This document shows positions 1,546 to 23,459 of a stretch of DNA of 64,000 nt, one piece after another. Source of the stretch: Comamonadaceae bacterium (GTDB lineage: Bacteria > Pseudomonadota > Gammaproteobacteria > Burkholderiales > Burkholderiaceae_C); the NCBI GenBank assembly GCA_947478725.1, contig CANJWZ010000001.1, positions 186,001 to 250,000 on the forward strand, read 5' to 3'. Below the pieces are notes generated by a model, which was given only the letters and a program-made list of their open reading frames with translations, was not told where the DNA came from and did no database searches. The stretch's first letter is position 1. Every line of letters starts with the position of its first letter. A program made the position numbers and the translations under genes.

Positions 1546-1549
1546 CTTT

Positions 1550-6443: not shown

Positions 6444-8117
6444 CTAGTTATACCAATAGGTGTACTCGTCTTGCGGCGACTCCTTTTGGTCCAGTGTTTT
6501 GTCTATGGTGATCGGCAGCCCAATAAAAGACGGCCACAGCGGCGCTGGCATGTTCGCATGGTGCGCCTGCAGTACGGCTTTTAACTGCGCCAGTTTTTGC
6601 GGCTCGGTGGCGGCGAGATTGAGCTTCTCGGTCGGGTCGGCATGGAGGTTAAACAGCCAATCTTTTTTGGGCCTTTCAGACGCGATGAGTTTCCAGCCAC
6701 CGTCCTGCACCGTGCGGTAAGGGCCATCACGCCAGAACAGCGGGCGCGGCGGCTGGGGTGCTTGCTGCGCGGCATTCTTGCCCAGAAAGGGCAGCAGGTT
6801 AACGCCGTCCATCACCCGGTCGGTTGGCAATCTGCCCCCAGCAGCCGCTACCACCGTGGGCAGGATGTCGATGTTGGACACGGGCTGTTTGTACTGCGTT
6901 CCCGCAGCGATACGCCCTGGCCACTTGGCCACATAGGGCACATGCAAACCGCCTTCGAATTGCGTCAGCTTCCATCCGCGGTAGGGTTGGTTGACCTCGG
7001 GTATGCCAAGGTAGCCGGGTGCTCCGTTGTCACTGGTAAAGATGACGATGGTGTTGTCATCAAGGCCCTCTTCGCGCAGCGTCTGCAGCACGCGGCCTAC
7101 GCTGCGGTCAACCGACTTGACCATGGCCGCATACACGCGCCGTCTGTGGTCAGGGATGTTGGGCAGCGCGTCGTAGTCGGCCTTGCTGGCCTGCAGTGGC
7201 GTGTGCACCCCCCAGTGAGCCAGGTACATGAAAAAGGGCTGGTTCTTGTTACGTTTGATGGCCGTGACCGCCTCGTCGGTAAAGTAGTCGGTCAGGTATT
7301 TGGCTGGCTCAAACCACTTGCCGCCGTTGTAGCTCACACCAAAACGCATGTTGGGCCAGAGAAATTTGTCGATCGGGTCAAAGTCCTGTTTGGCATTGAC
7401 AACCCTGGCGTCTTTCTCGGGCAGGTAAAGACCGCTTTCCATGAACAGGCTCTCGTCAAAACCCTGGTTGTTGGGCCGCATCTCGGGCGTGCTGCCCAAG
7501 TGCCATTTGCCGATATGGATGGTGTGGTACGCGCGCGCCTTGAGCAGCTCGGCCACGGTCTGCTCAGACGGCGGCATACCCAGATCACTGAATTTTTTGG
7601 CGTCAGCAGCCTGTTGCTTGTCGACAAGCGCCGGGCGAAGCCTGGTGGGGTCGGCATAGAGTTCGCCCGCCACGCGCGCCATGGCACCGGGCGTTGGCGT
7701 GAACTCAACCCCAAAGCGCCACGGGTAACGCCCCGTCATCAGCGCGGCGCGCGACACGGTGCACACCGCAGCAGCGGCATAGCCCTGGTCAAAGCGTACA
7801 CCGTCACGGGCGATCGCATCGATATGGGGCGTGGGTACGCCCTGCGCCCCGTGACCGCCGCCATAAGTGGTGACGTCGTTGAAGCCGAGATCGTCCGCAA
7901 GGATGACAATGATGTTGGGGGGGCGCTGCGCCAGCGGCTTGTCGGCCTGCGTCGGTCCGGCCACCCAAGGCACTGGGCGGTTCGCATCACGCGGATTGAT
8001 GATGTCGGTGTACCAGCCCAGTGAGTACTGCAAGAAATAGATCCGGTTGACATAGGCCACAGCGGCGATGCCGGCCAACACCACGACAGTGGCACCCAGG
8101 GTTTTGCGGAAATTCAT
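6444..8117 (-). CDS. Sulfatase 1 (alkaline-phosphatase superfamily), non-canonical C-T-V-S-R motif
   Basis: A type I sulfatase of 557 residues. It has an uncleaved-looking N-terminal membrane segment (about 8-24) followed by PPNIIVILADDLGFND (66-81), where Asp75 and Asp76 are metal ligands. The active-site region is Cys119-T-V-S-R-AALMTGR. The canonical motif is C-x-P-x-R, and here the Pro is Val; the rest of the signature, including the downstream TGR, is intact. Further motifs are HIGKWHLG (about 200-207), HWGVHTPLQA (about 298-307) and FTSDNGAPG (about 356-364). The fold is that of an arylsulfatase, anchored on the periplasmic side. It is a paralogue of the 9996-11678 gene. Confidence 0.9.
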   Translation of the reverse strand: MNFRKTLGATVVVLAGIAAVAYVNRIYFLQYSLGWYTDIINPRDANRPVPWVAGPTQADKPLAQRPPNIIVILADDLGFNDVTTYGGGHGAQGVPTPHIDAIARDGVRFDQGYAAAAVCTVSRAALMTGRYPWRFGVEFTPTPGAMARVAGELYADPTRLRPALVDKQQAADAKKFSDLGMPPSEQTVAELLKARAYHTIHIGKWHLGSTPEMRPNNQGFDESLFMESGLYLPEKDARVVNAKQDFDPIDKFLWPNMRFGVSYNGGKWFEPAKYLTDYFTDEAVTAIKRNKNQPFFMYLAHWGVHTPLQASKADYDALPNIPDHRRRVYAAMVKSVDRSVGRVLQTLREEGLDDNTIVIFTSDNGAPGYLGIPEVNQPYRGWKLTQFEGGLHVPYVAKWPGRIAAGTQYKQPVSNIDILPTVVAAAGGRLPTDRVMDGVNLLPFLGKNAAQQAPQPPRPLFWRDGPYRTVQDGGWKLIASERPKKDWLFNLHADPTEKLNLAATEPQKLAQLKAVLQAHHANMPAPLWPSFIGLPITIDKTLDQKESPQDEYTYWYN

Positions 8118-8126
8118 GAATGGTGC

Positions 8127-9005
8127 CTAGAGACTCGTGTTTATCTTATTCTTTGCGATGCCACCTGCAGCGCGCAGCATCTTCTGGGCGGTTTCAACAC
8201 CGGCGTTCTGGTTCTGGCCGGTGACGAGACGACCGTCCACGACCGTGAGGTTGGCAAAGGGCTCCAATGCCGCACTGGCGCTTTCAAACAGCGCGCCTGC
8301 TGCGCGCAGCTCGCGCTCGGGATGCTGTGGCGTGATGGTGATACCCAGTTGTTTGACCTGCCGGTTGGTGACTGCGGTGAGGTGTTTGCCTTTGACCAGC
8401 GGCTGGCCAGTGACATCCGTGGCCAGCAGCAAGCCCAATGGCCCGTGGCAAACGCCGCCCATGACTTTGCCCGCGGCCCAGGCCTGCGTGATCTTCTGGC
8501 CCAGCACGGTCGAGGTACCGAGGTCATAGGCAGCGCCCCAGCCACCGGCCAGAAAGATGATGTCGTACTGCGTGAAGTCAATCGCATCAATCTTCATCGA
8601 GGCTTTGACCTGGGCCTGAAAGACCGTATCTTTCAGGTAGCGTTTGTCAGACGGTGCTGCCAGAAACCAGCGAAACGAGTCGGGCTCAATCGGGATGGCA
8701 CCACCTTGAATGCTGGCCACGTCCACCTTCATGCCGGCCTCAAGAAACTCATAGTAAGGCGCGGTCATCTCTGAGCCAAAGACGCCCGTGGCCTTACCGC
8801 CTGCCCCTAGCGTGGCCTGGCTGGTGGTGATGATCAGTGCCTTGCCGCCAGGCAAAGTGTGGAAATCGCCGTGATAGGCCGGATGCAGACCAAACGCCCT
8901 GAGGGTGGCCGGCAGTGCCAGCCAGGCAAACAGCGCCAGCACTGTAACGACGATGAAAAAGAGGGTGGTCATGCGTTTATTTGGCAAAGGGTTGAAGGAA
9001 TACAA
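8127..9005 (-). CDS. DJ-1/PfpI family protein with N-terminal membrane segment
   Basis: The 292-residue protein has a class I glutamine-amidotransferase-like fold of the Hsp31/PfpI type. It contains LIITTSQ (about 57-63), the conserved Glu region FGSEMTAPYYEF (76-87), FLAGGWGAAYDL (151-162) and the nucleophile elbow GGVCHGPLG with Cys186-His187. A hydrophobic N-terminal helix (about 13-33) suggests membrane anchoring or export. Family members act as glyoxalase-III/deglycase, chaperone or hydratase; this one cannot be assigned. An alternative start is Met12 (8972). It sits 9 bases before sulfatase 1 and 13 bases after the DUF1330-like gene. Confidence 0.85.
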   Translation of the reverse strand: MYSFNPLPNKRMTTLFFIVVTVLALFAWLALPATLRAFGLHPAYHGDFHTLPGGKALIITTSQATLGAGGKATGVFGSEMTAPYYEFLEAGMKVDVASIQGGAIPIEPDSFRWFLAAPSDKRYLKDTVFQAQVKASMKIDAIDFTQYDIIFLAGGWGAAYDLGTSTVLGQKITQAWAAGKVMGGVCHGPLGLLLATDVTGQPLVKGKHLTAVTNRQVKQLGITITPQHPERELRAAGALFESASAALEPFANLTVVDGRLVTGQNQNAGVETAQKMLRAAGGIAKNKINTSL

Positions 9006-9018
9006 GCCAGTTGACTTG

Positions 9019-9648
9019 CTAGCGCGCCAGCAGATAAATCAAAGCGCCGAAAAAAACCAGCGCAGTGGCCATCAAGCCTCGGACAAAAACAAGACTGACA
9101 AGCGGCTTGACCGGAAAGACATGTGTCTTTTCTATGGCCGCCCATTTGTGAACGGTCAGGCCAGCTTTTTGAACCACCAAGGCAAAGCGTAAAAAGTCGC
9201 GGCGACTGCGGTAACGCACCATGGCGACGTAATGCCAGGCATCGGCTCCTTCAGGTTCGACGAATTGCCCGCATCGCTTCGCCACAAAAACCGGATGGTT
9301 GCCGAATCTCAGCAAGGGCCATAAGATCGCCTTTCCCCAACGCATGTCGGCCTTGCGGGCGTCGTCATCGTAGGCACCAGCTGGTGGATAGGCTGGTGGA
9401 TAAGCCGCTCTGGGTCGATGCCGAACCAGGTTCTGCATGACAAACTCCTTACCGTCATCGTTGGCCAGCAGCAGCCGAACCTCAGCGACCGCCGCGCTGT
9501 CCCTTTCACTTCGGGCGTGGGCATTGAGCTCAGCCAAGAAGTGCTCGATCTCAGCAGGTGACAGGGGCCGGCCACTACCACCATACCAAGCCAAAAACAG
9601 GCCGTAGATCACGGCCAGCGGGATAGCGATGGACAGCAGCAGTGTCAT
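9019..9648 (-). CDS. DUF1330-like protein with two membrane segments
   Basis: The 209-residue protein has a membrane segment at each end (about 2-21 and 188-206). The central part resembles DUF1330 dimeric alpha/beta-barrel proteins: KEFVMQNLVRHRP (about 67-79) and YVAMVRYRSRRDFLRFA (about 140-156), followed by a HKWAAIEKT element. The DUF1330 call is from pattern memory and is moderate. It is the first intact gene of the minus-strand operon. A degenerate copy of its 5' half lies at 11719-11850, next to the intact PF10118 gene. Confidence 0.6.
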   Translation of the reverse strand: MTLLLSIAIPLAVIYGLFLAWYGGSGRPLSPAEIEHFLAELNAHARSERDSAAVAEVRLLLANDDGKEFVMQNLVRHRPRAAYPPAYPPAGAYDDDARKADMRWGKAILWPLLRFGNHPVFVAKRCGQFVEPEGADAWHYVAMVRYRSRRDFLRFALVVQKAGLTVHKWAAIEKTHVFPVKPLVSLVFVRGLMATALVFFGALIYLLAR

Positions 9649-9877: not shown

Positions 9878-9895
9878 CCATACATGAATGTATGT
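9878..9895. promoter_or_regulatory. TetR-type operator, site A
   Basis: The sequence CCATACATGAATGTATGT has arms ACATACAT-type symmetrical around a short spacer and matches the perfect site B (14523-14540) at 13 of 18 positions, including TACAT and TGTAT at the same spacing. It lies between the minus-strand operon and sulfatase 2, which read away from it. Confidence 0.6.
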
Positions 9896-9995
9896 TTTTA
9901 TGTCATTCTTGTTTTTAAAGTGTTTTTTCTGATTTGGAGCAAAAGTCTGGGGTCTTACCATCCAAGCTTCTGAAACCCGCCTCTATGGGCCACCT

Positions 9996-11678
9996 ATGCT
10001 GAAGAAAATTGTCATTGCTTTTGGATTGTTGATTTCAGCCGTCGTGTTGGTGGTTGGCGGGCTTTATGTCAAAGGCGGGCAAGCAGAGGTGCTTTTGTGG
10101 GTGGTCAAACTCTTCATCAGACAAGAGCATGCGCCCAACAGGGAAGTCACTTGGGCCATTCCAAAAGGCAAGTCGGCAAGTCCTGAAGCCAGTACCGGCA
10201 TCAAACCACCCAATATCATTTTGATTGTGGCCGATGACTTGGGCTACAACGACATCAGTTTGAACGGTGGCGGCCTTGCCAAAGGCAGCGTGCCCACCCC
10301 CTTTATCAACAGCTTGGCGCAGCAAGGTGCCAATTTTGAAACCAGCTATTCGGGCAATGCCACCTGTGCACCTTCACGTGCCGCCATGATGACCGGACGC
10401 TATCCCACTCGCTTTGGCTATGAGTTCACGCCAACGCCCAAGCAGTTCATGAAAGTCGTTGGCCACTACAAGGGCCCCAACCAAGTGCATGACACCATTT
10501 ATCACGCTGATCGTGAAAAAGACCTCATCCCCTACGAAACCATGGGGCTGCCGCGTTCAGAAATCACGATGGCCAAGTTGCTCAAGGGGCAAGGTTATAG
10601 AACGCTGCATGTGGGCAAGTGGCATTTGGGCGATGCACCAGAATTTAGAGCCTATGCGCATGGCTTTGACGAGTCTTTGTCCTTTCCGCATGCCAGCTCT
10701 CTTTTCTTGCCAGAGAAAGATCCCAATGTGGTGAACGCTCAGCAATCTTTTGACATCATTGATAAATTTCAATGGGCCGCAGGCAGTTTTGGCATGCGCT
10801 TTAACAGCAGCGAACTCTTCAAGCCTAAGCGTTATGTGACAGATTACCTCACTGACGAAGCCGAAAAAGCCATTGATGCCAATCGCAATCAGCCCTTCTT
10901 TCTTTACCTGGCTTACACCGCGCCGCATACGCCATTGCAAGCCACCAAAGAAGACTACGCGGCACTGTCGCACATTGAAGACCACACATTGCGTGTGTAT
11001 GCCGCCATGGTTCGCAACCTAGACCGCAACATTGGCCGTGTGCTGCAAACACTGAAAGACAAAGGCTTGGACGACAACACCATTGTGATTTTTACCAGCG
11101 ACAACGGCGGTGCACATTACGTCGGCCTTGATGGTTTGAACAGTCCGTACCGCGGTTGGAAGGCCACGTTTTTTGAAGGCGGTATTCGGGTTCCCTTGTT
11201 CATGCGTTGGCCTGCAGGCATTCCCAAAGGTGTGAAGCCGCAACTGCCAGTCAACCACATGGACATCTTCACCACGGTGGCCGCTGCCACCGGCGCCAAG
11301 TTGCCCACTGACAGGCCGATGGATGGCATTAACTTGTTACCCCAAATCGCCAAGCCCACTGACAAAGGACCCGACCGCTCTTTGTTCTGGCGAACCGACA
11401 CGTATCGGGTGATTCGAAAAGGCGACTGGAAATTGCAGGTGACGCAAAACCCCAAAAAAGACTGGCTCTACCACCTGGCCGCAGACCCGACCGAAAAAGT
11501 CAATTTGGCAACCCAAGAACCCGCCAGAGTGGCCAGCATGAAGAAAGAGTTAGAAGCCTTCAATGCCACGCAAGTCAAGCCTAACTGGCCTTCCATGGCC
11601 GAGGCTGCCATCAGCATTGATAAAAATCTTCGGCAAACATCGCTGCCAACTGATGAGTACATTTACTACGGTAACTGA
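9996..11678 (+). CDS. Sulfatase 2 (alkaline-phosphatase superfamily), canonical C-A-P-S-R
   Basis: Type I sulfatase of 560 residues, clearly paralogous to sulfatase 1 along its length. N-terminal membrane segment at about 5-22; PPNIILIVADDLGYND (71-86) gives the metal ligands Asp80 and Asp81. The active-site motif Cys124-A-P-S-R-AAMMTGR is canonical for conversion to formylglycine by FGE. Other motifs: HVGKWHLG, FTSDNGGAHY, and GGIRVPLFMRWP in the second half. Its base composition is visibly lower in G+C than its neighbours, and it reads opposite to sulfatase 1 between two gene remnants, which suggests insertion or rearrangement. Operator A lies about 100 bases upstream. The Shine-Dalgarno site is weak. 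Confidence 0.92.
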   Translation: MLKKIVIAFGLLISAVVLVVGGLYVKGGQAEVLLWVVKLFIRQEHAPNREVTWAIPKGKSASPEASTGIKPPNIILIVADDLGYNDISLNGGGLAKGSVPTPFINSLAQQGANFETSYSGNATCAPSRAAMMTGRYPTRFGYEFTPTPKQFMKVVGHYKGPNQVHDTIYHADREKDLIPYETMGLPRSEITMAKLLKGQGYRTLHVGKWHLGDAPEFRAYAHGFDESLSFPHASSLFLPEKDPNVVNAQQSFDIIDKFQWAAGSFGMRFNSSELFKPKRYVTDYLTDEAEKAIDANRNQPFFLYLAYTAPHTPLQATKEDYAALSHIEDHTLRVYAAMVRNLDRNIGRVLQTLKDKGLDDNTIVIFTSDNGGAHYVGLDGLNSPYRGWKATFFEGGIRVPLFMRWPAGIPKGVKPQLPVNHMDIFTTVAAATGAKLPTDRPMDGINLLPQIAKPTDKGPDRSLFWRTDTYRVIRKGDWKLQVTQNPKKDWLYHLAADPTEKVNLATQEPARVASMKKELEAFNATQVKPNWPSMAEAAISIDKNLRQTSLPTDEYIYYGN

Positions 11679-11718
11679 GCGCATGCGCGAGCCACCCATT
11701 TCGGTGTCATTGCCAGTC

Positions 11719-11850
11719 CTACGCCCCTTCAGCTTCGACGAATTTTCCCTCGGTTTGAGCAGGCGCTAGGGGCTGGCCACTGCCACGATACCAAGCCAAA
11801 AACAGGCCTTAGATCACTGCCCGCAGGATAGCGATGGACAGCAGCAGGTC
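11719..11850 (-). pseudogene. Degenerate remnant of the DUF1330-like gene
   Basis: On the plus strand 11741-11872 closely matches 9541-9669, the 5' end of the intact gene at 9019-9648 plus the junction after it. The copy carries a TAC-to-TAA change (minus strand, near 11809) giving a stop, and a one-base deletion beside the start codon. A short match CTTCAGSTTCGACGAATT at 11720-11740 corresponds to about 9250-9268 of the intact gene, so an internal segment was deleted as well. Confidence 0.72.
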
Positions 11851-11855
11851 ATGGC

Positions 11856-12686
11856 CTAGGCCTGCTGCCCAACCAGGGAGAACTGCGCGGCGTTGTCCCG
11901 TAGCCATTGTTTTGAAAGCGCCCCATCATGCTGGCTAGGGTGAAAGGTGGGCGAAAAATAGTCGCGCCACAAACCGTAGTTGCTGCGCACCAAGCCGTCT
12001 TTGGCGAACAGCAGCCTGGCGCCGCTGCGCCAGCTACGCCAGCTCAACAGGCTGCCGTCATGCCAGAGATTGCGCACGGTTTGGCGTATCACGTCTGTCA
12101 GGAACACAAACGTGATGTAGCGAAAGATTCGCACACGCCAAGCATGATTGCCACTGACCGCTTGGTAAATATCAAAGGCGGTGCAGCGATGCTCGGACTC
12201 TTCCGCACTGTGCCAAAGCCACATGGTTTTCAGCCTTGGATCGGCACCGGCCAGCGCCTCAGGGTGACGCAACATCCAGTCGGCAAAAATAGCCGTGAAG
12301 TGCTCCGTGGCAGCGGTGGCGGCAACATGCATGCGTAGATCACGATGGGCGTTGGCCTTGAGTCGCCTCAAGGCGCGCCGCTCAATTTCGTTGCGATAGC
12401 CCAGGTTTTCCAAATGGCTGTTGAACAAAAAGTGAATCCTTCTGTGCGTGGCCTCTTGTCCGGCAAAGCCCTTGACCTCGGCCGCGTACTTGTCCTGCTC
12501 TGACGCCGGCAGGGCCTTCAAGCCATTGCGCACCGAGTCAATAAAGTACTGCTCGCCCACTGGAAAGCTCATCGACAGAGCGTTGAAGAAGGCAGAGCGG
12601 AACGCATCACCGCCGTTCCACCGACCGGGAAAAGGTGTGCTCAGGTCAACCAACAGGCGGCGTACTACTAAATCGGTCATGGTCAT
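11856..12686 (-). CDS. PF10118 metal-dependent hydrolase family protein
   Basis: The protein has 276 residues, mostly helical. Motifs look like a ferritin-type di-iron site: GQEATHRRIHFLF (about 90-102), ATEHFTAIFADW (about 134-145) and WHSAEESEHRCTAFDIY (about 163-179). The family is annotated as metal-dependent hydrolase, but the reaction is not established. A hydroxylase or oxygenase role is possible from the E-x-x-H pattern, which is inference. It follows the acyl-CoA ligase gene by 72 bases on the same strand and is probably co-transcribed. A truncated paralogue lies at 9652-9810. The start may instead be Met3 (12680). Confidence 0.82.
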   Translation of the reverse strand: MTMTDLVVRRLLVDLSTPFPGRWNGGDAFRSAFFNALSMSFPVGEQYFIDSVRNGLKALPASEQDKYAAEVKGFAGQEATHRRIHFLFNSHLENLGYRNEIERRALRRLKANAHRDLRMHVAATAATEHFTAIFADWMLRHPEALAGADPRLKTMWLWHSAEESEHRCTAFDIYQAVSGNHAWRVRIFRYITFVFLTDVIRQTVRNLWHDGSLLSWRSWRSGARLLFAKDGLVRSNYGLWRDYFSPTFHPSQHDGALSKQWLRDNAAQFSLVGQQA

Positions 12687-12758
12687 TGTCTCAACAGTCG
12701 GTTCATGGTTTTGAAGGCTTCATGAAATTTCAACATTTTTGCGGGCGAGCGACCTCGC

Positions 12759-14429
12759 TCAGACCCGCTCGCGCAGCTCGCGCCGCAAAATCTTACCCAC
12801 ATTGCTTTTCGGCAACTCGTCCATGAACTCAATTTCACGTGGCATTTTGTAAGCGGTCAGATTTTCGCGGCAATGCCGGATGAGATCTTCTTTCGTCAAG
12901 TCAGCTGTTTTCTTGACCACATAAATCAGCACCGACTCACCCGAATGTTGGCTCGGCTTGCCAACAGCCGCCACTTCCAAAACGCCCGGGTGCATCATCA
13001 CGACATCTTCGATTTCATTCGGGTAGACATTAAAGCCGGACACCAGAATCACGTCTTTGAGGCGGTCGACCAACTTGAGGAAACCATTGCCATCCATCAC
13101 CGCGACATCACCGGTGCGTAAAAAGCCATCCGCCGTCATCACCGCAGCGGTTTCAAGAGGCCGCTGCCAGTAGCCCTGCATCACTTGGGGACCGCGCACG
13201 CAGAGCTCTCCGGCTTCACCCACAGGCAGTTCTTTGCCATCTGCGTTGCGAATGGACACCTCGGTAGAGGGAACCGGCAGGCCAATGCTGCCGTTGAAGG
13301 CTTTCAGGTCTAGCGGGTTCACGGTGACGGTGGGTGAGCACTCGGTCAGCCCATAACCTTCAATCAGCGGGGTGTGGGTAATGTGCTGCCAGCGCTCTGC
13401 AACAGCGCGCTGCACTGCCGCACCGCCGCCGATGGCAACGCGCAGCTGGCTGAAATTTACTTTTGCGAAGTCTGGGTTATTGACCAGGCCATTGAACAGC
13501 GTGTTCACAGCAGGCAACGAGACAAAGCGGTAGCGGCTCAATACTTTGACAAAGGCCGGAATGTTGCGAGGGTCGGCCACCAGCACGTTGGTGCCGCCCA
13601 TACCAACAAAGCCCAGGCACGTCCCCAGCGCGAAGATGTGGTACAGCGGAATGGCCGTGATGCTGATCAGGTCGGCGTTTTTATCCAAAAAGGGCTCAAA
13701 CCAGACCTGGCCCTGTTTGGCATTGGCAAGGATGTTGAGGTGGGTCAGCATCGCGCCCTTTGATACGCCCGTGGTTCCGCCGGTGTACTGCAAAAAAGCA
13801 AGGTCGTTGGGCTGGATATCGACCGGTTTAAATGCAGCCACCGCGCCACGTGCCAACATGCCTAGATACGTCACGCTGCCCGGCAAGCTGTACGCGGGCA
13901 CCATTTTTTTAACCTTGCGGACCAGAAAGTTGCCCAGCACCCGTTTAGGCCACGGCATCATGTCGGCCAGGCCTGTGACCACCACATGTTTAACGGCGGT
14001 GTTTTTGATGACCTTGGCCAGCGTGTGCGCAAAAACGTCAACGATGACCATCGCCTCTGCGCCTGAATCCCTGAGCTGGTGCTCCAGTTCGCGGGCGGTG
14101 TACATCGGATTCACGTTGACCACCACATAACCCGCACGCAACAGGCCGAACAGGCAGACCGGATATTGCAGCAAATTGGGCATCATCAAGGCAACGCGTG
14201 CGCCTTGGGCCAGCTTGAGTTCGGACTGAAAATAGGCGGCCACCCGTTCCGAGAGCTTGTCCAGCTGGCTGTAAGTCATCGCTACACCGGTGGATCCGCT
14301 GATAAACGCGTCACGATCTGCGTACTGTCTGGTGGCATCAGCGAAATATTGCGCAATGGAATGCAGCGCACCCAGGTCAATGTTTTCAGGGACTCCCGCA
14401 GAGTAGCTTTTGAGCCAGATTTTTTCCAT
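12759..14429 (-). CDS. Long-chain fatty-acid--CoA ligase (FadD-like)
   Basis: This 556-residue ANL-superfamily ligase activates a carboxylic acid as acyl-AMP and then acyl-CoA. The AMP-binding P-loop LQYTGGTTGVSKGAM lies at about 213-227, YGLTECSP near 350, and the hinge/A8 region LRTGDVAVMDGNGFLKLVDRLKD near 430-450. PKSNVGKILRREL at the C-terminus holds the catalytic Lys. It resembles FadD of medium/long-chain type. In the cluster it would feed an acid product into beta-oxidation. Operator B overlaps its predicted -10 box about 110 bases upstream. Confidence 0.93.
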   Translation of the reverse strand: MEKIWLKSYSAGVPENIDLGALHSIAQYFADATRQYADRDAFISGSTGVAMTYSQLDKLSERVAAYFQSELKLAQGARVALMMPNLLQYPVCLFGLLRAGYVVVNVNPMYTARELEHQLRDSGAEAMVIVDVFAHTLAKVIKNTAVKHVVVTGLADMMPWPKRVLGNFLVRKVKKMVPAYSLPGSVTYLGMLARGAVAAFKPVDIQPNDLAFLQYTGGTTGVSKGAMLTHLNILANAKQGQVWFEPFLDKNADLISITAIPLYHIFALGTCLGFVGMGGTNVLVADPRNIPAFVKVLSRYRFVSLPAVNTLFNGLVNNPDFAKVNFSQLRVAIGGGAAVQRAVAERWQHITHTPLIEGYGLTECSPTVTVNPLDLKAFNGSIGLPVPSTEVSIRNADGKELPVGEAGELCVRGPQVMQGYWQRPLETAAVMTADGFLRTGDVAVMDGNGFLKLVDRLKDVILVSGFNVYPNEIEDVVMMHPGVLEVAAVGKPSQHSGESVLIYVVKKTADLTKEDLIRHCRENLTAYKMPREIEFMDELPKSNVGKILRRELRERV

Positions 14430-14522
14430 GCTTTAGTTCTGGGTGACTGGTTGACCACTTCGCCTCAACATCTCTAGAAAGCGATCAGGTCTGACGACGA
14501 TAGGTTTTAAGTTGACCCGCTT

Positions 14523-14565
14523 CAATACATTAGTGTATTGTAAAAATAGACGAGGTTGACATCAA
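14523..14565 (-). promoter_or_regulatory. Promoter of the acyl-CoA ligase gene with TetR-type operator site B
   Basis: On the minus strand TTGATG (14565-14560), a 17-base spacer and TACAAT (14542-14537) form a good sigma-70 promoter. The 18-bp site CAATACATTAGTGTATTG at 14523-14540 is a perfect dyad (CAATACA-N4-TGTATTG) and overlaps the -10 box, a position suited to repression. Confidence 0.68.
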
Positions 14566-14601
14566 TTTTTAGGAGCTGACGCACACGTTACAAGGCGCCT
14601 A

Positions 14602-14639
14602 TTGACAGGCTACTTGGCGTTCAATACAGTGATGTACTG
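14602..14639 (+). promoter_or_regulatory. Promoter of the desaturase/SDR genes with TetR-type operator site C
   Basis: TTGACA (14602-14607), a 17-base spacer and TACAGT (14625-14630) form a promoter reading toward the sterol-desaturase gene. The dyad CAATACAGTGATGTACTG (14622-14639) matches site B at 14 of 18 positions and covers the -10 box. Sites B and C lie back to back in one divergent region. Confidence 0.68.
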
Positions 14640-14719
14640 TGCAGCTTTTAGCTGGACGCTTAAACGTGTTTTTCATGCCAACGCGCGTCACGATCGTCAT
14701 CCCTCCAACAAGACCTACG

Positions 14720-15571
14720 ATGCAAACACAAACTGTGCAACTGTTGGCTGTTTTTTCTGTGCTGGGCAGCTTCGCGCTGGCCGAGCTTGTGCAAAGGCGC
14801 TTCTTTGCACCGGAAGCCACACGTGAAGACAACCGACTCGACATCGCTGTCACGCTGATCTTTCCGCTGATCGCCGGGGCTGTGGTGGCTGCCGCCAACG
14901 CTTTGTGCGTCTGGTTGATGCCAGAGCAACGCGACGCCCTGGCTGGCTGGCCGGTATGGCAAATGGTGCTGGTGTTGTTGCTGGCAGACGACCTGACCCA
15001 GTACTTTTGGCACCGACTGAGTCACACCTCCTTCATGTGGCCCCTGCACCGCGCCCACCACTCCGCCGCTTATATGAGTGTGCGTATCGTCTACCGCAAC
15101 AATGCCTTTTACTACGCGCTGATGCCGGGCCTGTGGCTGTCGGGTGTGCTCATTTACCTTGGGTTTGGTTGGGTCTACGTGGTCTATTCCATCGTCAAGC
15201 TGTCCGTGATCATTGGCGCGCATTCTGCCGTGCGCTGGGACCAGTGGCTGTACCGTTACCGCGTGCTGCGCCCGCTGGCCTGGGTGGTCGAGCGAACCAT
15301 TTCGACTCCCGCTACCCACTATGCGCACCATGCCTTGGTGCAGGACGACGGCGTGGGTCACTACACCGGCAATTACGGCAATTTGCTTTTTTTCTGGGAC
15401 GTGCTGTTTGGTACCGCACACATCACGCGGCGCTACCCGCCGGCCTATGGCCTGACGGATGACCGGGCGCACGGGCCAGAGTCCTGGCTAACGCAGCTTG
15501 TGTACCCGCTCAAGCGTTCACGCCGCGCTGAAACCGTGCTTGGCAACGCCTCACACCAGCCACCGAAATAG
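14720..15571 (+). CDS. Fatty-acid hydroxylase / sterol desaturase family membrane protein
   Basis: An integral-membrane di-iron oxygenase candidate of about 283 residues. Histidine boxes are complete: HRLSH (98-102), HRAHH (110-114), a lone His168 and HYAHH (200-204), between hydrophobic segments at about 5-24, 42-64, 80-95 and 135-165. Family members hydroxylate or desaturate fatty acids, sterols or carotenoids; the substrate here is unknown. The frame is open from 14639, but that start would lie in the operator. I chose the Met at 14720; 14675 is an alternative, and neither has a strong ribosome site. The SDR gene follows after 31 bases. Confidence 0.85.
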   Translation: MQTQTVQLLAVFSVLGSFALAELVQRRFFAPEATREDNRLDIAVTLIFPLIAGAVVAAANALCVWLMPEQRDALAGWPVWQMVLVLLLADDLTQYFWHRLSHTSFMWPLHRAHHSAAYMSVRIVYRNNAFYYALMPGLWLSGVLIYLGFGWVYVVYSIVKLSVIIGAHSAVRWDQWLYRYRVLRPLAWVVERTISTPATHYAHHALVQDDGVGHYTGNYGNLLFFWDVLFGTAHITRRYPPAYGLTDDRAHGPESWLTQLVYPLKRSRRAETVLGNASHQPPK

Positions 15572-15602
15572 CCTCTGGCATCAAACTTTCAGGAAATTTC
15601 GC

Positions 15603-16493
15603 ATGACATGGCTGACTGGCAAGACGGTGGTGATCACCGGCGCTGCATCCGGCATAGGCGAGGCGCTGGCCCACGCGCTGGCCGGTCAGGGCGCGCGGCT
15701 GCTGCTGGCCGATGTGGACGCAGACCGCCTCGAAGCGGTGGCCAGCAGCGTCCGGCTGACAGGGGCGACATGCCTGACTCAGCTTTGCGATGTGTCACAG
15801 GTCTCGGCATTAGAAGCGCTGGCCGAGCTTGCGCTGCGCGAGCTGGGCGGCGCGGACGTGCTCATCAACAATGCGGGCGTGGCGCTGGTCGCGCCGGTGC
15901 AAAGCCTGTCGCTGACCGACGCGCACTGGCTGATGGACATCAACTTTTGGGGCGTGGTGCATGGCTGCCGCGCCTTCACCCCGCAATTGCAGGCGCGCCC
16001 AGACGGCACCATCGTCAACCTGTCGAGTGTCTTTGCCATGGTGTCGCTACCCACCCAGTCGATCTACAACGCCAGCAAGGCGGCCGTGCGCGCATTCTCG
16101 GATGCGTTGCGCGAAGAGTTGCGCAAAAAGCCAGGCAATGCTCACAACGCGGAAAGCGCACATGGCGTACGCGTGCTGTGCGTGCATCCCGGCGGCATCC
16201 GCACACGGCTGGTGACGCAGGCGCGGCTAGGTGACATCTCCTCCGTCGCCGAGAGCCCACAAGCCCTGCAGGCGCAGTTTAAGGGGGTGGCCCGTACCAG
16301 CGCCGACCAAGCCGCCGCCGCCATCGTCCAGGCACTGCGCGATGGCAGAACACGCCTGCTCATAGGCGCAGATGCGCGTCTGGGTGACTGGCTGTTTCGC
16401 CTGGCACCGGGCCGGGCTTCGGCCTGGTTTTCAGCGCTGGCGCTATGGGGTCAGCACCAGATCAAGCGGCGCATGGCTCAAAAACCTACCTGA
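15603..16493 (+). CDS. Short-chain dehydrogenase/reductase
   Basis: A classical SDR of 296 residues. TGAASGIG (12-19) binds the nucleotide, NNAG lies at 89-92, and the catalytic set is Ser141/142 with Tyr155-x3-Lys159 (YNASK). A longer C-terminal part (about 200-296) resembles the SDRs found beside EthA/MymA-type monooxygenases. The start at 15603 follows AGGAAA by about eight bases; upstream in-frame codons lie inside the previous gene. A likely role is oxidation of an alcohol made by the neighbouring hydroxylase or BVMO, which is inference from context. Confidence 0.9.
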   Translation: MTWLTGKTVVITGAASGIGEALAHALAGQGARLLLADVDADRLEAVASSVRLTGATCLTQLCDVSQVSALEALAELALRELGGADVLINNAGVALVAPVQSLSLTDAHWLMDINFWGVVHGCRAFTPQLQARPDGTIVNLSSVFAMVSLPTQSIYNASKAAVRAFSDALREELRKKPGNAHNAESAHGVRVLCVHPGGIRTRLVTQARLGDISSVAESPQALQAQFKGVARTSADQAAAAIVQALRDGRTRLLIGADARLGDWLFRLAPGRASAWFSALALWGQHQIKRRMAQKPT

Positions 16494-16538
16494 GGCGCTG
16501 GTTTTTACAGCTCCATGAACGGCCAGTAGATATCGCGA

Positions 16539-17201
16539 TCATGCAGTTTTTGCGCCCAGGCGCCGCTTTGCAGGCGATACGGGCAAAGTCTGGCCCTGCT
16601 GATGAATCAGGTAGATGGCGATGATGCCCGAGAGGTAGCTGCTGACTTGCGGCGGGTTCCCGGGCCGGCTCATGGCCTGGTAACTGCCGACGATCGCCAG
16701 ATAAAACAGGGCCGCCAGTTCGGTCGATTTTTTCTTGTCGCCTGTCAGGCGCAAAAACTTTTGCTCAAACAGGTCCATGCGCGCCTGGTCGACCTCTGCC
16801 AGCATTTTGGCGACTCGGTCATCGCGCCGGCCCAGACCGCGCAAGGCCAGCTCAAAACGGATGTTCTCCAAATCAGCGCCGGCATGGGCCAGGGCGACCT
16901 CCAGCAGATGCTCCAGGTCAGCCTTGGGGTCGGCTGTAGTCTGGGCAACGGCGCCCAGCTGATCACCGAGTGCGATTTCGCGCTGCAGCCAGCGGGCCAG
17001 CAAAGCGGCAATCAGGTCGGCATGGTCGGCGAAGTGCCAGTAAAAGCTGCCGCGCGTCACGCCCAGCGTCTCGGCAATCATCAGCACCTTGGCCTTGTCA
17101 AAGCCACCCTCGACCACTGCATTAAAGGCAGCGTCGAGCCAGTCATCGCGGGTCAGGCGGGGGGCGTCAGCTCGCTTGCCTGATTTTTTCTTTGCTGTCA
17201 T
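16539..17201 (-). CDS. TetR/AcrR family transcriptional regulator, probable regulator of the cluster
   Basis: The 220-residue protein starts MTAKKKSGKRADAPRLTRDD. An N-terminal TetR helix-turn-helix spans about residues 16-65 (WLDAAFNAVVEGGFDKAKV, LGVTRGSFYWHFADHADLI), followed by a helical ligand and dimer domain. The open frame extends to 17378, but that N-terminus runs through the operators and has non-coding composition; the Met at 17201 precedes a normal TetR start. The gene is divergent from the 17340 operon and faces two copies of the 18-bp dyad also found at 9.9 and 14.5 kb. Repression relieved by a pathway intermediate is inferred. Confidence 0.9.
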   Translation of the reverse strand: MTAKKKSGKRADAPRLTRDDWLDAAFNAVVEGGFDKAKVLMIAETLGVTRGSFYWHFADHADLIAALLARWLQREIALGDQLGAVAQTTADPKADLEHLLEVALAHAGADLENIRFELALRGLGRRDDRVAKMLAEVDQARMDLFEQKFLRLTGDKKKSTELAALFYLAIVGSYQAMSRPGNPPQVSSYLSGIIAIYLIHQQGQTLPVSPAKRRLGAKTA

Positions 17202-17260
17202 GAAATTATTGTCTGTTGATTGAACAACCAGATGGGTGCCAATGGAAAATAAAAATCGAT

Positions 17261-17278
17261 CCGTACACTCATGTATTG
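17261..17278. promoter_or_regulatory. TetR-type operator, site D
   Basis: CCGTACACTCATGTATTG matches site B at 13 of 18 positions and keeps the TACA-N4-TGTA core. It lies in the tetR/17340 divergent region. Confidence 0.55.
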
Positions 17279-17299
17279 TTATGATACATTCGGATTTTT

Positions 17300-17317
17300 C
17301 AAAACAGCAGTGTATTG
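17300..17317. promoter_or_regulatory. TetR-type operator, site E
   Basis: CAAAACAGCAGTGTATTG matches site B at 15 of 18 positions; the left half is AACA instead of TACA and the right half is perfect. It lies 22-40 bases before the 17340 start, so binding should block that promoter or early elongation. Confidence 0.55.
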
Positions 17318-17339
17318 ATGGCACAAAAATAAAAGTGTG

Positions 17340-18644
17340 ATGTCGCTTAAAAGTCTGCTCATGCCTGCCGTCAGCCAATGGTTCCTCTCACGGGACCGAT
17401 TGATGAAGCAGCGTGCGCGCGCCGAACGGGCGCGGGTGAACCGGGGCGAAGCGCACCAGGTCCACTACTTTCACCAGGTTGACGACCCCTACAGCGCGCT
17501 GGCCGCAGCCTGCCTGCCACGCTTGCTGGAACGCTATGACATCGCCATCACCGCGCATGTGGTCGGCCCGCCACCCGACAGCGCAGCGGCTGAGCGTGAC
17601 AAGCTGATCGCCTACAGCCGCAAGGACGCGCAGCTGCTGGCCAGTCGCTGGGGCATGACGTTTGAAGACCACGGCGCGCAACCCGCGCCGGATGATGTGA
17701 GCCTGGCCACGCGCCTGCTGGTCGCCAGCATCCAGAACGGGCGCTTCGTTGAAGTGGCGGGGCAAATCTCGTCAGACCTTTGGCACCACCCGGCCGCATT
17801 GGCTGAGGGCGGCGCAGCCGTTGAGCTGGCCGATGCGGATCGGCATGTGACCGAGTCCAACACACTGCGCCAGCACTTGGGCCACTACCTGGGTGCAACT
17901 TTTTTTTATGGCGGTGAATGGTATTGGGGCATTGACCGACTGCACCACCTGGAGCTCAGGCTGAAAGCGCTGGGCGCTCAACACGCTGGTGCGCTCGATG
18001 TGATGTTTCCGCCGAGCACGGACTTGCAAGATTCAGTGCCGATCAATCGTCCACCGGCCATCGATTTTTATGTCTCGCTGCGTAGCCCCTACTCTGCCAT
18101 CGCCGCGCCAAGGGTGTTCGAGCTAGGCCGGCGCACTGGGGCAAAAGTGCGGCTGCGCTTTGTGCTGCCGATGGTCATGCGCGGCCTGCCGGTGCCGCGC
18201 AACAAACGCCTGTACATCAGCCAGGACGCAGCGCGCGAAGCCTGGGTGCGCCGCGTTGACTTTGGCCGATTGAATGACCCGATCGGTAAGCCCACAGCGC
18301 GTGGCCTGGCCCTGATACCTTTTGCCGAGCGTCATGGCAAGGGCGAAAGCTTCCTGCTGTCATTCATGCGTGGGGTCTGGGCCGAAGGCATCAATGCGGG
18401 CAGCGACAGCGGCTTGCGCAACATCGTTGAGCGCGCCGACCTTGACTGGAGCCAGGCCCGCCTGGCCTTGAAAGACCAGGGCTGGCGCAAGACAGCGGAG
18501 CAAAACCGTCAAGACCTGTTCAGCCTGGGTTTATGGGGCGTGCCCTCGTTTCACGTCGGCGACGTGGCAGTCTGGGGCCAGGATCGTTTGTGGGCCGTGG
18601 AAGACGAATTATTAAAAGGAAGTCAAGCATGTTCTTTGTCCTGA
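17340..18644 (+). CDS. Double DsbA-fold (2-hydroxychromene-2-carboxylate isomerase-like) protein
   Basis: The 434-residue protein appears to hold two copies of the DsbA/HCCA-isomerase (GST kappa) fold. Domain 1 (about 40-235) begins YFHQVDDPYSALAA and domain 2 (about 240-425) begins DFYVSLRSPYSAIAA. In HCCA isomerase the Ser of the S-P-Y-S element is catalytic with glutathione; domain 2 keeps it, while domain 1 has Asp in its place. No CxxC is present, so it is not a disulfide oxidoreductase. ATG at 17340 is chosen; a GTG at 17337 is adjacent. It is the first gene of the plus-strand operon, and the next gene overlaps by 16 bases. Confidence 0.78.
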   Translation: MSLKSLLMPAVSQWFLSRDRLMKQRARAERARVNRGEAHQVHYFHQVDDPYSALAAACLPRLLERYDIAITAHVVGPPPDSAAAERDKLIAYSRKDAQLLASRWGMTFEDHGAQPAPDDVSLATRLLVASIQNGRFVEVAGQISSDLWHHPAALAEGGAAVELADADRHVTESNTLRQHLGHYLGATFFYGGEWYWGIDRLHHLELRLKALGAQHAGALDVMFPPSTDLQDSVPINRPPAIDFYVSLRSPYSAIAAPRVFELGRRTGAKVRLRFVLPMVMRGLPVPRNKRLYISQDAAREAWVRRVDFGRLNDPIGKPTARGLALIPFAERHGKGESFLLSFMRGVWAEGINAGSDSGLRNIVERADLDWSQARLALKDQGWRKTAEQNRQDLFSLGLWGVPSFHVGDVAVWGQDRLWAVEDELLKGSQACSLS

Positions 18645-18889
18645 AAGCCGTGTGCCTGGGTATTTATGCGCTCGCCATGGCAGGTTTGGCAGGCCTGCTG
18701 CCCAGTGGTCTTGCGGGCAGCATGCAGACGATTGCGCTGGTGATGTTGGCGGTCCATGTTGTCGAGCTGGCGGTCATGTTCAAGCATGTCAAGCGCTACC
18801 CCGGCCCGCTCGCCATCAGCATTGTGCTGGCCATGCTGTTTGGCCTGTTGCACTGGAAGCCGCTGGCTGACGCCGCCAAGAAAGGCTAG
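18629..18889 (+). CDS. Small integral membrane protein, DUF1145-like
   Basis: An 86-residue protein with three predicted membrane segments (about 4-24, 33-50 and 60-76). A short cytoplasmic loop, MFKHVKRYPGP, gives the pattern I associate with DUF1145/YhhL proteins. Function is unknown. The ATG at 18629 is preceded by AAAGGAAG, a good ribosome site, and overlaps the end of the preceding gene. Sulfatase 3 begins 4 bases after its stop. Position in the operon suggests a membrane accessory role, but nothing in the sequence proves it. Confidence 0.7.
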   Translation: MFFVLKAVCLGIYALAMAGLAGLLPSGLAGSMQTIALVMLAVHVVELAVMFKHVKRYPGPLAISIVLAMLFGLLHWKPLADAAKKG

Positions 18890-18893
18890 CGCC

Positions 18894-20693
18894 ATGCGCC
18901 GCCGGATAGACACACAGTTGCTGATCATGGCGTTGGCCTTTTGCGGGTTTTCCTTCGCTGGCAGCGCCCTTGCTGACGAAAAAAAGCGGCCCAACATCGT
19001 CGTGCTGCTGGCAGACGACTGGGGCTTTAGCGATGTGGGTGCGTTTGGCGGCGAAATTGCCACGCCCCACCTGGATGACCTGGCACGGCGCGGGATGCGG
19101 TTTTCAAATTTTCACGTGAGCGCGTCGTGCTCGCCGACCCGCGCCATGCTGCTGACCGGGGTCGACAACCACCGCAATGGCGTGGGCAATATGCGGGAGA
19201 CGATTCCCCGGTCGCATGTGGGCAAGCCCGGCTACCTGAGCGTGCTGGACACCAATGTCGTCACCATTGCCAGCCTGCTCAAAGACAGCGGTTACCGCAC
19301 CTACGTGGCTGGCAAGTGGCATGTCGGCAAGGAAGCGCACAACCTGCCGCCGGCGCGCGGCTTTGAGCGCTCCATCATTCAGGGGGACAGTGGCTCGGAC
19401 AACTGGGAAACCGGCAAGCGCTACCTGGACCTGGCCGACACGGTGAGTTGGTTTGAAGACGGCAAGACAGCCGTCATGCCGACGGATTACTACTCATCGA
19501 AGTTCTTTGTCGACAAGATGCTGGCGTACATCCAGTCCGGCGCGAAAGACAAGAAGCCTTTTTTTGCCTATGTTGCGTTTCAGGCCAATCACATTCCACT
19601 GCAGGCACCCAAAGAGTTTGTTGACAAATACAAAGGGAAATATGACAAGGGCTGGACGGCACTGCGCCAGGCGCGGCGCGACAAGGCCATCGAACTGGGG
19701 CTGATACCCAAAGACGCCCCCATGGTGACCATGAGCACCACCGCCAACTGGGACGCGCTGAGCGACAAGGACAAGCAATACCAGGCCAGACGAATGGAGG
19801 TCTACGCCGCCATGGCCGATGCGATGGACGCTCAGGTTGGCCGCTTGGTTGCTTACCTGAAGGATGTTGGCGAGTATGACAACACGGTGTTTGTCTTCAT
19901 GTCCGACAACGGTGCTGAAGCGTCTGACCCCTACGCCGTCCTTGCCGGTCGGCTTTGGTTGGACTGGAAGTACAACAAGTCCATCGAACAGCTGGGTGCC
20001 AAAGGGGCTTACAGCATCATTGGGCCAAGCTGGGCCAGCGCTGCGGCATCACCGCTGAGCACCTACAAGTTTTATTCAGGCGAAGGCGGTATCCGCGTGC
20101 CGCTGATCATCTCGGGCGCGGCCAACATGCAGCGCAACCAGATTTTCAGCGGTCTGGCGCACATCAACGACATCGCGCCTACCTTGCTGGAACTGGCGCA
20201 GGTGGCCCGGCCGAACGGGAATTACAAAGGCCAAGCCGTCGAGCCCATGACAGGCAGCAGCCTGCTGCCGGTGCTCAAAGGACAAGCGCAGCAGGTCCAC
20301 GCCGCAGATAAGGCCATTGGCTATGAACTGTCAGGCAACCAGGCCGTCTTCAAGGGCGATCTCAAGCTGATTAAGAATATTCCTCCCGTCGGTGATGGGC
20401 TATGGCATCTTTACGATATTCGCAACGATCCGGGCGAGACCAAGGACCTACAAAGCCAAATGCCCGACATCTTCGCAGCGATGCAGGCCGACTACGCGGC
20501 TTACGCCAAAGCCAATGGCGTGCTGCCTATGCCTGAGAACTATGACCCGATACAGCAAGTACTGATCAACGCCCTCGTTAACGTTTACCTGCCACGCTTT
20601 GAACGCATCGGGCTGCCCATTCTGGCTGCTGGGCTTTTACTCGTGGCCGCTTTTGTGCTGGTACGCCGACGTCGCCGGATGCAGGCCCCGTGA
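18894..20693 (+). CDS. Sulfatase 3 (arylsulfatase), exported, canonical C-S-P-T-R, C-terminal membrane tail
   Basis: A 599-residue type I sulfatase. The true start is the ATG at 18894, after which a cleavable signal peptide is seen (MRRRIDTQLLIMALAF to about ALA27). RPNIVVLLADDWGFSD (32-47) gives Asp41 and Asp42, and Cys79-S-P-T-R-AMLLTG is the canonical formylglycine motif. Further motifs are VAGKWHVGK and FMSDNGAEASD. It is only distantly related to sulfatases 1 and 2 and has an insert typical of larger arylsulfatases. A C-terminal hydrophobic helix followed by RRRRR (about 573-596) predicts anchoring with the catalytic domain in the periplasm. The next gene overlaps by four bases. Confidence 0.92.
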   Translation: MRRRIDTQLLIMALAFCGFSFAGSALADEKKRPNIVVLLADDWGFSDVGAFGGEIATPHLDDLARRGMRFSNFHVSASCSPTRAMLLTGVDNHRNGVGNMRETIPRSHVGKPGYLSVLDTNVVTIASLLKDSGYRTYVAGKWHVGKEAHNLPPARGFERSIIQGDSGSDNWETGKRYLDLADTVSWFEDGKTAVMPTDYYSSKFFVDKMLAYIQSGAKDKKPFFAYVAFQANHIPLQAPKEFVDKYKGKYDKGWTALRQARRDKAIELGLIPKDAPMVTMSTTANWDALSDKDKQYQARRMEVYAAMADAMDAQVGRLVAYLKDVGEYDNTVFVFMSDNGAEASDPYAVLAGRLWLDWKYNKSIEQLGAKGAYSIIGPSWASAAASPLSTYKFYSGEGGIRVPLIISGAANMQRNQIFSGLAHINDIAPTLLELAQVARPNGNYKGQAVEPMTGSSLLPVLKGQAQQVHAADKAIGYELSGNQAVFKGDLKLIKNIPPVGDGLWHLYDIRNDPGETKDLQSQMPDIFAAMQADYAAYAKANGVLPMPENYDPIQQVLINALVNVYLPRFERIGLPILAAGLLLVAAFVLVRRRRRMQAP

Positions 20694-23458: not shown

Positions 23459-23459
23459 C

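What the first reader, a model, noticed from the sequence alone, without database searches (positions are those of the whole stretch)
9878..17317. One 18-bp dyad in all three divergent regions of the cluster: a predicted TetR regulon
The same dyad, consensus CAATACATNANTGTATTG, occurs at 9878-9895, 14523-14540, 14622-14639, 17261-17278 and 17300-17317. These are exactly the three divergent intergenic regions of the 2.4-25.5 kb cluster. Site B is a perfect 18-bp palindrome apart from its 4-base centre. Sites B and C overlap the -10 boxes of promoters with 17-base spacers (TTGATG/TACAAT and TTGACA/TACAGT), and two copies face the TetR gene at 16539-17201. I saw none outside the cluster. One repressor probably controls about 20 genes.
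Basis: partly seen in the sequence, partly recalled or inferred. Interest (0 to 1): 0.88.

Follow-up and report, generated by a model that had tools for sequence, protein, structure and literature searches.

The report
TetR operator regulon of sulfatase cluster
Five copies of a short DNA palindrome sit in the three shared promoter regions of a 19-gene cluster and very probably mark where one TetR-type repressor controls the whole cluster; the same palindrome stands at matching genes in many related bacteria, and the genes look like a pathway for breaking down sulfated, perhaps fatty, compounds.

Summary
The five dyads are where stated and far beyond chance. The regulon reading is strongly supported by comparative genomics; nothing was tested at the bench. 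In 69 of 80 loci with an orthologous tetR the dyad lies within 400 bp upstream of tetR; without any matrix, TAC-N6-GTA is upstream in 60 of 80, any other spacing in at most 10. In 87 genomes of the genus, tetR and sulfatase 1 occur in the same seven, and a strict dyad pattern in 6 of those 7 against 2 of 80 others. A TetR paralogue with the same recognition helix has the same dyad at a FadD-like gene. Corrected half-site: C-M-R-TACA, that of AcrR and MbdR but 4 bp closer together. The dyads face six units, 19 genes: three cysteine-type sulfatases with a maturase, FadD, a Baeyer-Villiger monooxygenase, a haloalkane dehalogenase and tetR itself. One relative adds a beta-oxidation operon. Best reading: an autoregulated repressor of catabolism of a sulfated, probably lipid-like compound. 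Boldest reading not excluded: degradation of algal chlorosulfolipids.

The parts
9878..9895 (.). Operator dyad A, between the leftward operon starting at 9648 and the rightward sulfatase gene at 9996
   Evidence: leave-one-out score 17.5
14523..14540 (.). Operator dyad B, overlaps the end of the -10 of a leftward promoter (TTGATG-17-TACAAT) ahead of fadD
14622..14639 (.). Operator dyad C, covers the -10 of a rightward promoter (TTGACA-17-TACAGT) ahead of the fatty-acid-hydroxylase gene
17261..17278 (.). Operator dyad D, on the tetR side of the tetR/DsbA-like divergent gap
   Evidence: close relatives L025 and L026 keep a D/E pair 39 bp apart
17300..17317 (.). Operator dyad E, on the DsbA-like side of the same gap
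16539..17201 (-). tetR: the predicted autoregulated repressor (220 aa, helix VTRGSFYWHF)
2385..3779 (-). DUF1254/DUF1214 protein
3776..4816 (-). Formylglycine-generating (sulfatase-maturing) enzyme family
4823..5923 (-). Glutathione S-transferase family protein
5908..6411 (-). Weak polyketide-cyclase-like match
   Evidence: below the Pfam cut-off
6444..8117 (-). Sulfatase 2b (C-T-V-S-R motif read in the printed sequence)
8127..9005 (-). DJ-1/PfpI family protein
9019..9648 (-). Conserved protein without a Pfam family (U209), first gene left of dyad A
9996..11678 (+). Sulfatase 2a (CAPSR motif)
11856..12686 (-). PF10118 predicted metal-dependent hydrolase
12759..14429 (-). FadD-type long-chain acyl-CoA ligase, first gene left of dyad B
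14720..15571 (+). Fatty acid hydroxylase superfamily, first gene right of dyad C
15603..16493 (+). Short-chain dehydrogenase
17337..18644 (+). Protein with a DsbA-like thioredoxin domain, first gene right of dyads D/E
18756..20693 (+). Sulfatase 1 (CSPTR motif), best-scoring solved relative arylsulfatase 1hdh
20690..21946 (+). Conserved protein without a Pfam family (U418), predicted beta-propeller
21989..23458 (+). Flavin monooxygenase with the Baeyer-Villiger fingerprint FAGRMVHPQQW
23385..24542 (+). Metallo-beta-lactamase-fold hydrolase with a hydrophobic N-terminal stretch (read by eye)
24545..25465 (+). Haloalkane dehalogenase family, CQDWG / HGEPTW / GHFLQE motifs

Best explanation
The dyads are operators of the TetR-family protein encoded at 16539-17201. 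A dimer binds each 18-bp dyad and blocks promoters in three divergent gaps, so it represses six transcription units (19 genes) including its own gene. When the pathway substrate is present, an intermediate, most likely an acyl-CoA or other long-chain lipid-like compound, binds the repressor and releases it. The genes encode catabolism of a sulfated, probably lipid-like compound: sulfatases (with their maturase) remove sulfate; oxidoreductases, the Baeyer-Villiger enzyme, the dehalogenase and hydrolases process the carbon chain; FadD activates it and beta-oxidation finishes it. Shown by computation: the dyads, their conservation, their association with tetR and the cluster, enzyme families and key motifs. 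Inferred: binding, repression, operon limits, ligand and substrate. The confidence below is for the regulator part; I put a sulfated lipid-like substrate at about 0.5.
For: Upstream of orthologous tetR: 69 of 80 loci at matrix score 13 or more. Leaving out the two closest relatives, 67 of 78, against a mean of 0.58 (maximum 2) in 100 dinucleotide shuffles and a mean of 0.99 (maximum 31) in 500 symmetric column permutations of the matrix. Collapsed at 80% TetR identity, 36 of 41 groups have it upstream and 41 of 41 have a dyad somewhere in the locus. Matrix-free: TAC-N6-GTA upstream in 60 of 80 loci, other spacings 0-10. 103 of 137 dyads lie in divergent gaps against 13% of random positions. 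Strict pattern and tetR co-occur: genus 6 of 7 against 2 of 80, family sample 12 of 13 against 16 of 386, Fisher P 4e-7 and 1e-14. A TetR paralogue with the same VTRGSFYWHF helix has the same dyad between itself and a FadD-like gene (L161, L165), which ties dyad to helix. In L140 a dyad precedes a FabG-MaoC-thiolase-acyl-CoA-dehydrogenase operon. Enzyme evidence.
Against: No binding or expression data. 11 of 80 loci lack the dyad in front of tetR. 16 of 386 tetR-free family genomes have the strict pattern; the reversed pattern appears in 8 of the 399. One own-genome place outside the cluster, with 2 mismatches, scores 20.8 by the matrix, within the range of real sites when left out, though it lies between convergent gene ends. 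Column permutations that keep part of the motif reach 31 loci. The matrix was not run over the whole own genome. Best-scoring solved relatives of sulfatases 1 and 2a are an arylsulfatase and carrageenan sulfatases, so a lipid substrate is not read from them. Beta-oxidation genes are in few loci (acyl-CoA dehydrogenase in 6 of 46 long loci). The 80 loci are the best 80 of 562 and were found with the words RDDWLDAA and VTRGSFYW, so the helix is conserved among them partly by construction, and they are not independent.
Confidence: 0.88

Rival explanations
1. The dyads are real operators of a different regulator, and the resident TetR binds elsewhere.
For: 11 of 80 loci have tetR without a dyad in front of it, and in G125 and G136 the strict dyads are kilobases or a contig away from tetR.
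Against: Co-occurrence of dyad and tetR across 87 and 399 genomes, and the same dyad at a paralogue with the same recognition helix.
Confidence: 0.06
2. The TetR controls the cluster, but the pathway is not for sulfated lipids: for example sulfated steroids or terpenoids, sulfated aromatics or algal polysaccharide sulfates. (This rivals the substrate part only.)
For: Best-scoring solved relatives of sulfatases 1 and 2a are an arylsulfatase and carrageenan sulfatases; the best NCBIfam hit of the flavin monooxygenase is a pentalenolactone synthase, below its cut-off.
Against: FadD, WS/DGAT and beta-oxidation genes in some loci and the FadD-linked sister system; no glycoside hydrolase or ring-cleavage family among the window's cluster genes.
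Confidence: 0.4
3. The TetR is a multidrug-type sensor like AcrR or TtgR and the cluster is a detoxification set.
For: Best solved relatives by sequence are AcrR and TtgR, GST and DJ-1 genes are present, the half-site is shared with AcrR.
Against: Similarity is mainly in the DNA-binding domain; no efflux-pump family among the 19 genes; 40 of 46 long loci have a sulfatase.
Confidence: 0.06
4. The dyads are RNA hairpins or mobile-element ends, not operators.
For: They are inverted repeats in non-coding gaps.
Against: C spans a -10 box and B runs from a -10 box across the likely start, so neither would be transcribed whole; the arms of B are only 7 bp; half-sites keep fixed N6 spacing and fixed bases across loci.
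Confidence: 0.01

Closest known systems
MbdR regulon, anaerobic 3-methylbenzoate degradation, Azoarcus sp. CIB (PMC4424350; passages seen)
   Same: TetR-family repressor with operators at several promoters of one catabolic cluster including its own gene's, half-sites ATAC/GTAT, operators overlapping -10, -35 and start sites, released by the acyl-CoA intermediate 3-methylbenzoyl-CoA.
   Different: MbdR operator is ATAC-N10-GTAT; here the spacing is N6. Pathway genes differ.
AcrR of E. coli, 24-bp operator TACATACATTTGTGAATGTATGTA (PMC10597343; passages seen)
   Same: CATACA/TGTATG half-site; best solved sequence relative, mainly over the DNA-binding domain.
   Different: AcrR half-sites are 4 bp further apart (counted from the printed operator); AcrR is best known for efflux control.
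FadP and PsrA fatty-acid-degradation regulons (PMC5343134; passages seen)
   Same: TetR-family regulators of fatty acid degradation; FadP is predicted for Ralstonia, Burkholderia and Comamonadaceae.
   Different: FadP's motif could not be compared: the original paper is not held. Here the regulon is a patchy accessory sulfatase cluster.
Haloalkane dehalogenases 6f9o and 4mj3; arylsulfatase 1hdh
   Same: The window enzymes align over nearly the whole length or catalytic domain and keep the family motifs.
   Different: Substrates unknown here.

Membership tests
TetR-family autoregulated local repressor | TetR_N DNA-binding domain | tested here: met
   PF00440, E 1.9e-10
TetR-family autoregulated local repressor | All-helical TetR fold | tested here: met
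   Eight helices in a model of moderate confidence (mean pLDDT 72.6); top Foldseek hits are TetR-family regulators, TM 0.4-0.6
TetR-family autoregulated local repressor | Palindromic operator in its own divergent promoter region | tested here: met
   Dyads D and E; dyad upstream in 69 of 80 orthologous loci
TetR-family autoregulated local repressor | Protein binds the operator and is released by a ligand | not testable with these tools
   Needs gel shift, footprinting and ligand screens
AcrR/MbdR-type operator | ATAC/GTAT half-sites | tested here: met
   Pooled motif
AcrR/MbdR-type operator | N10 between ATAC and GTAT | tested here: not met
   ATAC-N6-GTAT in 26 and ATAC-N10-GTAT in 0 of 80 upstream regions
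FadP regulon | FadP motif and core fad targets | not tested
   Motif source not held
Type I (formylglycine) sulfatases | Cysteine-type active-site motif with a maturase nearby (definition recalled) | tested here: met
   CSPTR, CAPSR, CTVSR; FGE-family gene 3776-4816
Baeyer-Villiger monooxygenase | FxGxxxHxxxW fingerprint (recalled) | tested here: met
   10 of 10 members of the gene family and the relatives in L056 and L058
Haloalkane dehalogenase | Nucleophile Asp followed by Trp, and catalytic His motif (recalled) | tested here: met
   CQDWG in 18 of 18; GHF[LV]QE in 16 of 18, one of the other two being cut by the end of the fetched locus

The most novel reading that the evidence does not exclude
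The regulon is a bacterial pathway for chlorosulfolipids, the polychlorinated alkyl sulfates of freshwater chrysophyte algae. Sulfatases remove the sulfate esters, the haloalkane dehalogenase removes chlorine, SDR and Baeyer-Villiger monooxygenase turn the mid-chain alcohol into an ester that a hydrolase cuts, and FadD plus beta-oxidation finish the chain; the TetR senses an acyl intermediate. The paper searches made here listed no account of such a pathway (listings only, open-licence papers only).
Probability: 0.12. Interest if true: 0.85.

Novelty: new member of a known kind. Interest (0 to 1): 0.55.

Why it matters
It gives a sharply defined operator and a single regulator for an uncharacterised, patchily distributed catabolic cluster of Burkholderiales. 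The operator is a handle for genome scans: it already pointed to a beta-oxidation operon (L140) and to a chalcone-isomerase-like gene away from the cluster (L131, L132). The combination of sulfatases, haloalkane dehalogenase and Baeyer-Villiger enzyme under one switch makes the substrate question testable by induction. It also offers a case where an AcrR-type half-site is used at a spacing 4 bp shorter.

Tried and rejected
RNA hairpin or transposon end: rejected for position and fixed half-site spacing. Own-genome place C2:129092 (2 mismatches): between convergent gene ends, so not counted as a target. Strict-pattern places in G016 and G020: the same place in both, at the start of a gene that I read as folC (recalled), judged unrelated. 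The strict pattern in two more relatives of the order (G057, G048) lies inside called ORFs.

Of the 16 tetR-free family genomes with the pattern, 10 were fetched: G396 is a fragment with cluster genes; G228 and G252 lie beside a TetR paralogue and a FadD-like gene; G402 and G190 lie near the start of FadD-like genes; G316, G333, G262 and G449 are inside called ORFs; G465 precedes a TetR-like gene with another helix (by reading). Six (G329, G377, G444, G464, G502, G521) were not inspected.

In one search, 27 of 28 genomes have the strict pattern, 53 sites in all (reversed control 2), 4 of them off the cluster contig: two are the same Undibacterium place, upstream of a chalcone-isomerase-like gene and downstream of a TonB-receptor gene (so the receptor is not counted as a target), two lie inside called ORFs. 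Some of those genomes are the same as genus genomes (for example G061 and G015), so they are not independent.

FadP's motif could not be compared, its source not being held. Paper searches: for the regulon, searches found no paper with all terms; one search found 18, of which 10 were listed and none read. For chlorosulfolipid degradation, one search found 2 papers with all three terms (on membranes and octocorals, not read); two searches gave listings, of which one paper (PMC13413282) was seen in passages. Fold search for the TetR was uninformative on the ligand: AmtR, FadR, KstR2 and other chains at TM 0.4-0.6. A profile of U418 found no solved relative by sequence.
Full report
Observation. 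They stay the top five places of the window when each is left out of the matrix in turn. They lie in the three divergent gaps of a 19-gene cluster at 2385-25465: 9648/9996, 14429/14720 and 17201/17337 (the starts at 14720 and 17201 are ATG codons inside longer listed ORFs). Pooled over 122 sites found in 75 of 78 relatives' loci, the half-site is C[AC][AG]TACA followed mostly by C. Sites B and C overlap -10 boxes with 17-base spacers as claimed, although the promoter scan as a whole is near its chance level, 5 found against 3.2 expected.

Own genome. With a stricter pattern taken from many loci (CMRTACABNNVTGTAYKG) the genome has three places, all in the cluster (B, C, D); A and E fall outside that pattern. 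The one outside place with 2 mismatches scores 20.8 by the matrix but sits between two convergent gene ends. A full matrix scan of the genome was not possible.

Phylogenetic footprint. In 69 of 80 the window's matrix finds a dyad (score 13 or more) within 400 bp upstream of the start of the tetR match; the reversed matrix finds 4 hits in all 80 loci together. Without the two closest relatives it is 67 of 78, against a mean of 0.58 and a maximum of 2 in dinucleotide shuffles; permuting the matrix columns gives a mean of 0.99 but a maximum of 31. At score 15 the 78 loci hold 122 sites and the reversed matrix 2. The loci are not independent; collapsed at 80% TetR identity, 36 of 41 groups have the dyad upstream, and 41 of 41 have a dyad somewhere in the locus. 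A test without any matrix, TAC-N(k)-GTA for k from 0 to 16, gives 60 of 80 upstream regions at k=6 and 0-10 at every other spacing.

Eleven loci lack the dyad in front of tetR. In seven of them (L072, L076, L084, L090, L097, L098, L100) tetR faces a sulfatase-2 gene instead, and dyads stand beside the PF10118 gene in all seven and beside the DsbA-like gene in the five whose contig reaches it. So the dyad follows the target operons and not merely the tetR gene.

Presence and absence. In 87 genomes of the genus, tetR (E up to 1e-50) occurs in seven and sulfatase 1 (E up to 1e-100) in the same seven; the strict dyad occurs in six of these and in 2 of the 80 others, both at one unrelated place; the reversed pattern occurs in 1 of 87. 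The seventh, G018, has a looser copy scoring 18.7 (L037). In 399 genomes sampled from the family, tetR occurs in 13 and the strict dyad in 12 of these, against 16 of 386 without tetR; the reversed pattern occurs in 8 of the 399. Fisher P is 4e-7 and 1e-14, ignoring relatedness.

The exceptions help. Of the 16, ten were inspected. One (G396) is a fragment with the cluster's PF10118, U209 and sulfatase-2 genes. Two (G228, G252) have the dyad between a paralogous TetR, about 40% identical to cluster TetRs but with the same VTRGSFYWHF helix, and a FadD-like gene; G402, of the same genus as G228, also has two dyads at a FadD-like gene, and G190 one. The same helix with the same dyad supports the TetR as the reader of the site. 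Four of the ten are inside called ORFs and look like chance; one precedes a TetR-like gene with another helix.

Regulon. Over the window and 80 loci, 137 dyads score 15 or more; 132 are near a called gene start (57% of random positions are too) and 103 lie in divergent gaps (13% of random positions). First genes include tetR, a Phenol_MetA_deg-family gene, fadD, the DsbA-like gene, PF10118, sulfatase 1 and fatty-acid hydroxylase. In L140 a dyad precedes a FabG-MaoC-thiolase-acyl-CoA-dehydrogenase operon. In two Undibacterium genomes a perfect dyad away from the cluster lies upstream of a chalcone-isomerase-like gene and downstream of a TonB-receptor gene on the same strand. In Undibacterium pigrum further dyads stand before a Baeyer-Villiger/SDR pair, a GST-FGE-aldehyde-dehydrogenase-DUF1254-esterase run and a run with PF10118 whose other two genes I read as fadD and sulfatase from the printed starts.

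Gene content. Of 46 loci of 16 kb or more, 40 have a sulfatase, 37 U418, 33 the DsbA-like gene, 27 each FGE and DUF1254, 25 each PF10118 and the metallo-beta-lactamase-fold gene, 20 the haloalkane dehalogenase, 11 fadD, 10 the Baeyer-Villiger gene and 6 the acyl-CoA dehydrogenase; contig ends and the tblastn cut-off make these lower bounds. The window's sulfatases carry cysteine-type motifs, the dehalogenase its CQDWG, HGEPTW and GHFLQE motifs, the monooxygenase the FxGxxxHxxxW fingerprint; what these motifs mean is recalled. U418 has no Pfam family and is modelled as a beta-propeller at mean pLDDT 86.4, best Foldseek hits Rv3035 and tetrathionate hydrolase.

Mechanism. The best-supported reading is classical: a dimeric TetR repressor, autoregulated, sitting on or beside -10 boxes, released by a pathway intermediate. 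The closest worked example is MbdR, which represses promoters of one cluster through ATAC-N10-GTAT and is released by an acyl-CoA (PMC4424350, passages). AcrR's operator, as printed, has the same half-site at N10 (PMC10597343, passages). Here it is N6; ATAC-N10-GTAT occurs in none of the 80 upstream regions. That the TetR binds, represses, and is released by a lipid-like ligand is inference.

Substrate. Sulfatases with their maturase, acyl-CoA ligase, a dyad-linked beta-oxidation operon, wax-ester synthase genes in 5 of 80 loci and a FadD-linked sister system point to a sulfated lipid-like substrate, at about 0.5. Against this, the best-scoring solved relatives of sulfatases 1 and 2a are an arylsulfatase and carrageenan sulfatases. 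The dehalogenase and Baeyer-Villiger enzyme downstream of sulfatase 1 suggest the bolder idea of chlorosulfolipids, first described from the freshwater chrysophyte Ochromonas danica (PMC13413282, passages). That is a hypothesis with no direct test here.

Verdict. As regulation it is a new member of a well-known kind; the interest lies in the uncharacterised pathway it delimits.

Noticed in passing
L161:2932-5425, L165:4744-7220, L160:3164-5062: A paralogous TetR (about 40% identical, same VTRGSFYWHF helix; seen in L161 and L165) with the same dyad beside a FadD-like gene (a thiolase-like gene follows in L161), in other genera of the family: apparently a sister regulon of acyl-CoA metabolism.
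   Followed up: partly
L131:6811-6828 and L132:6861-6878: A perfect dyad in two Undibacterium genomes, away from the cluster, upstream of a chalcone-isomerase-like gene and downstream of a TonB-receptor gene.
   Followed up: partly
window 20690-21946: U418, a conserved protein of the cluster without any Pfam family (37 of 46 long loci), modelled as a beta-propeller.
   Followed up: partly
window 622-2385 and 25462-27282: The cluster lies beside MraZ- and MraW-family genes (622-2011) and a STAS-domain gene; sulfatase 1 occurs in only 7 of 87 genomes of the genus, so the cluster looks like an accessory insertion.
   Followed up: no
L157:7050-7718, L159:3893-4600: A gene that reads like a second, different TetR-type regulator lies near the sulfatase operon in two genus relatives.
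   Followed up: no
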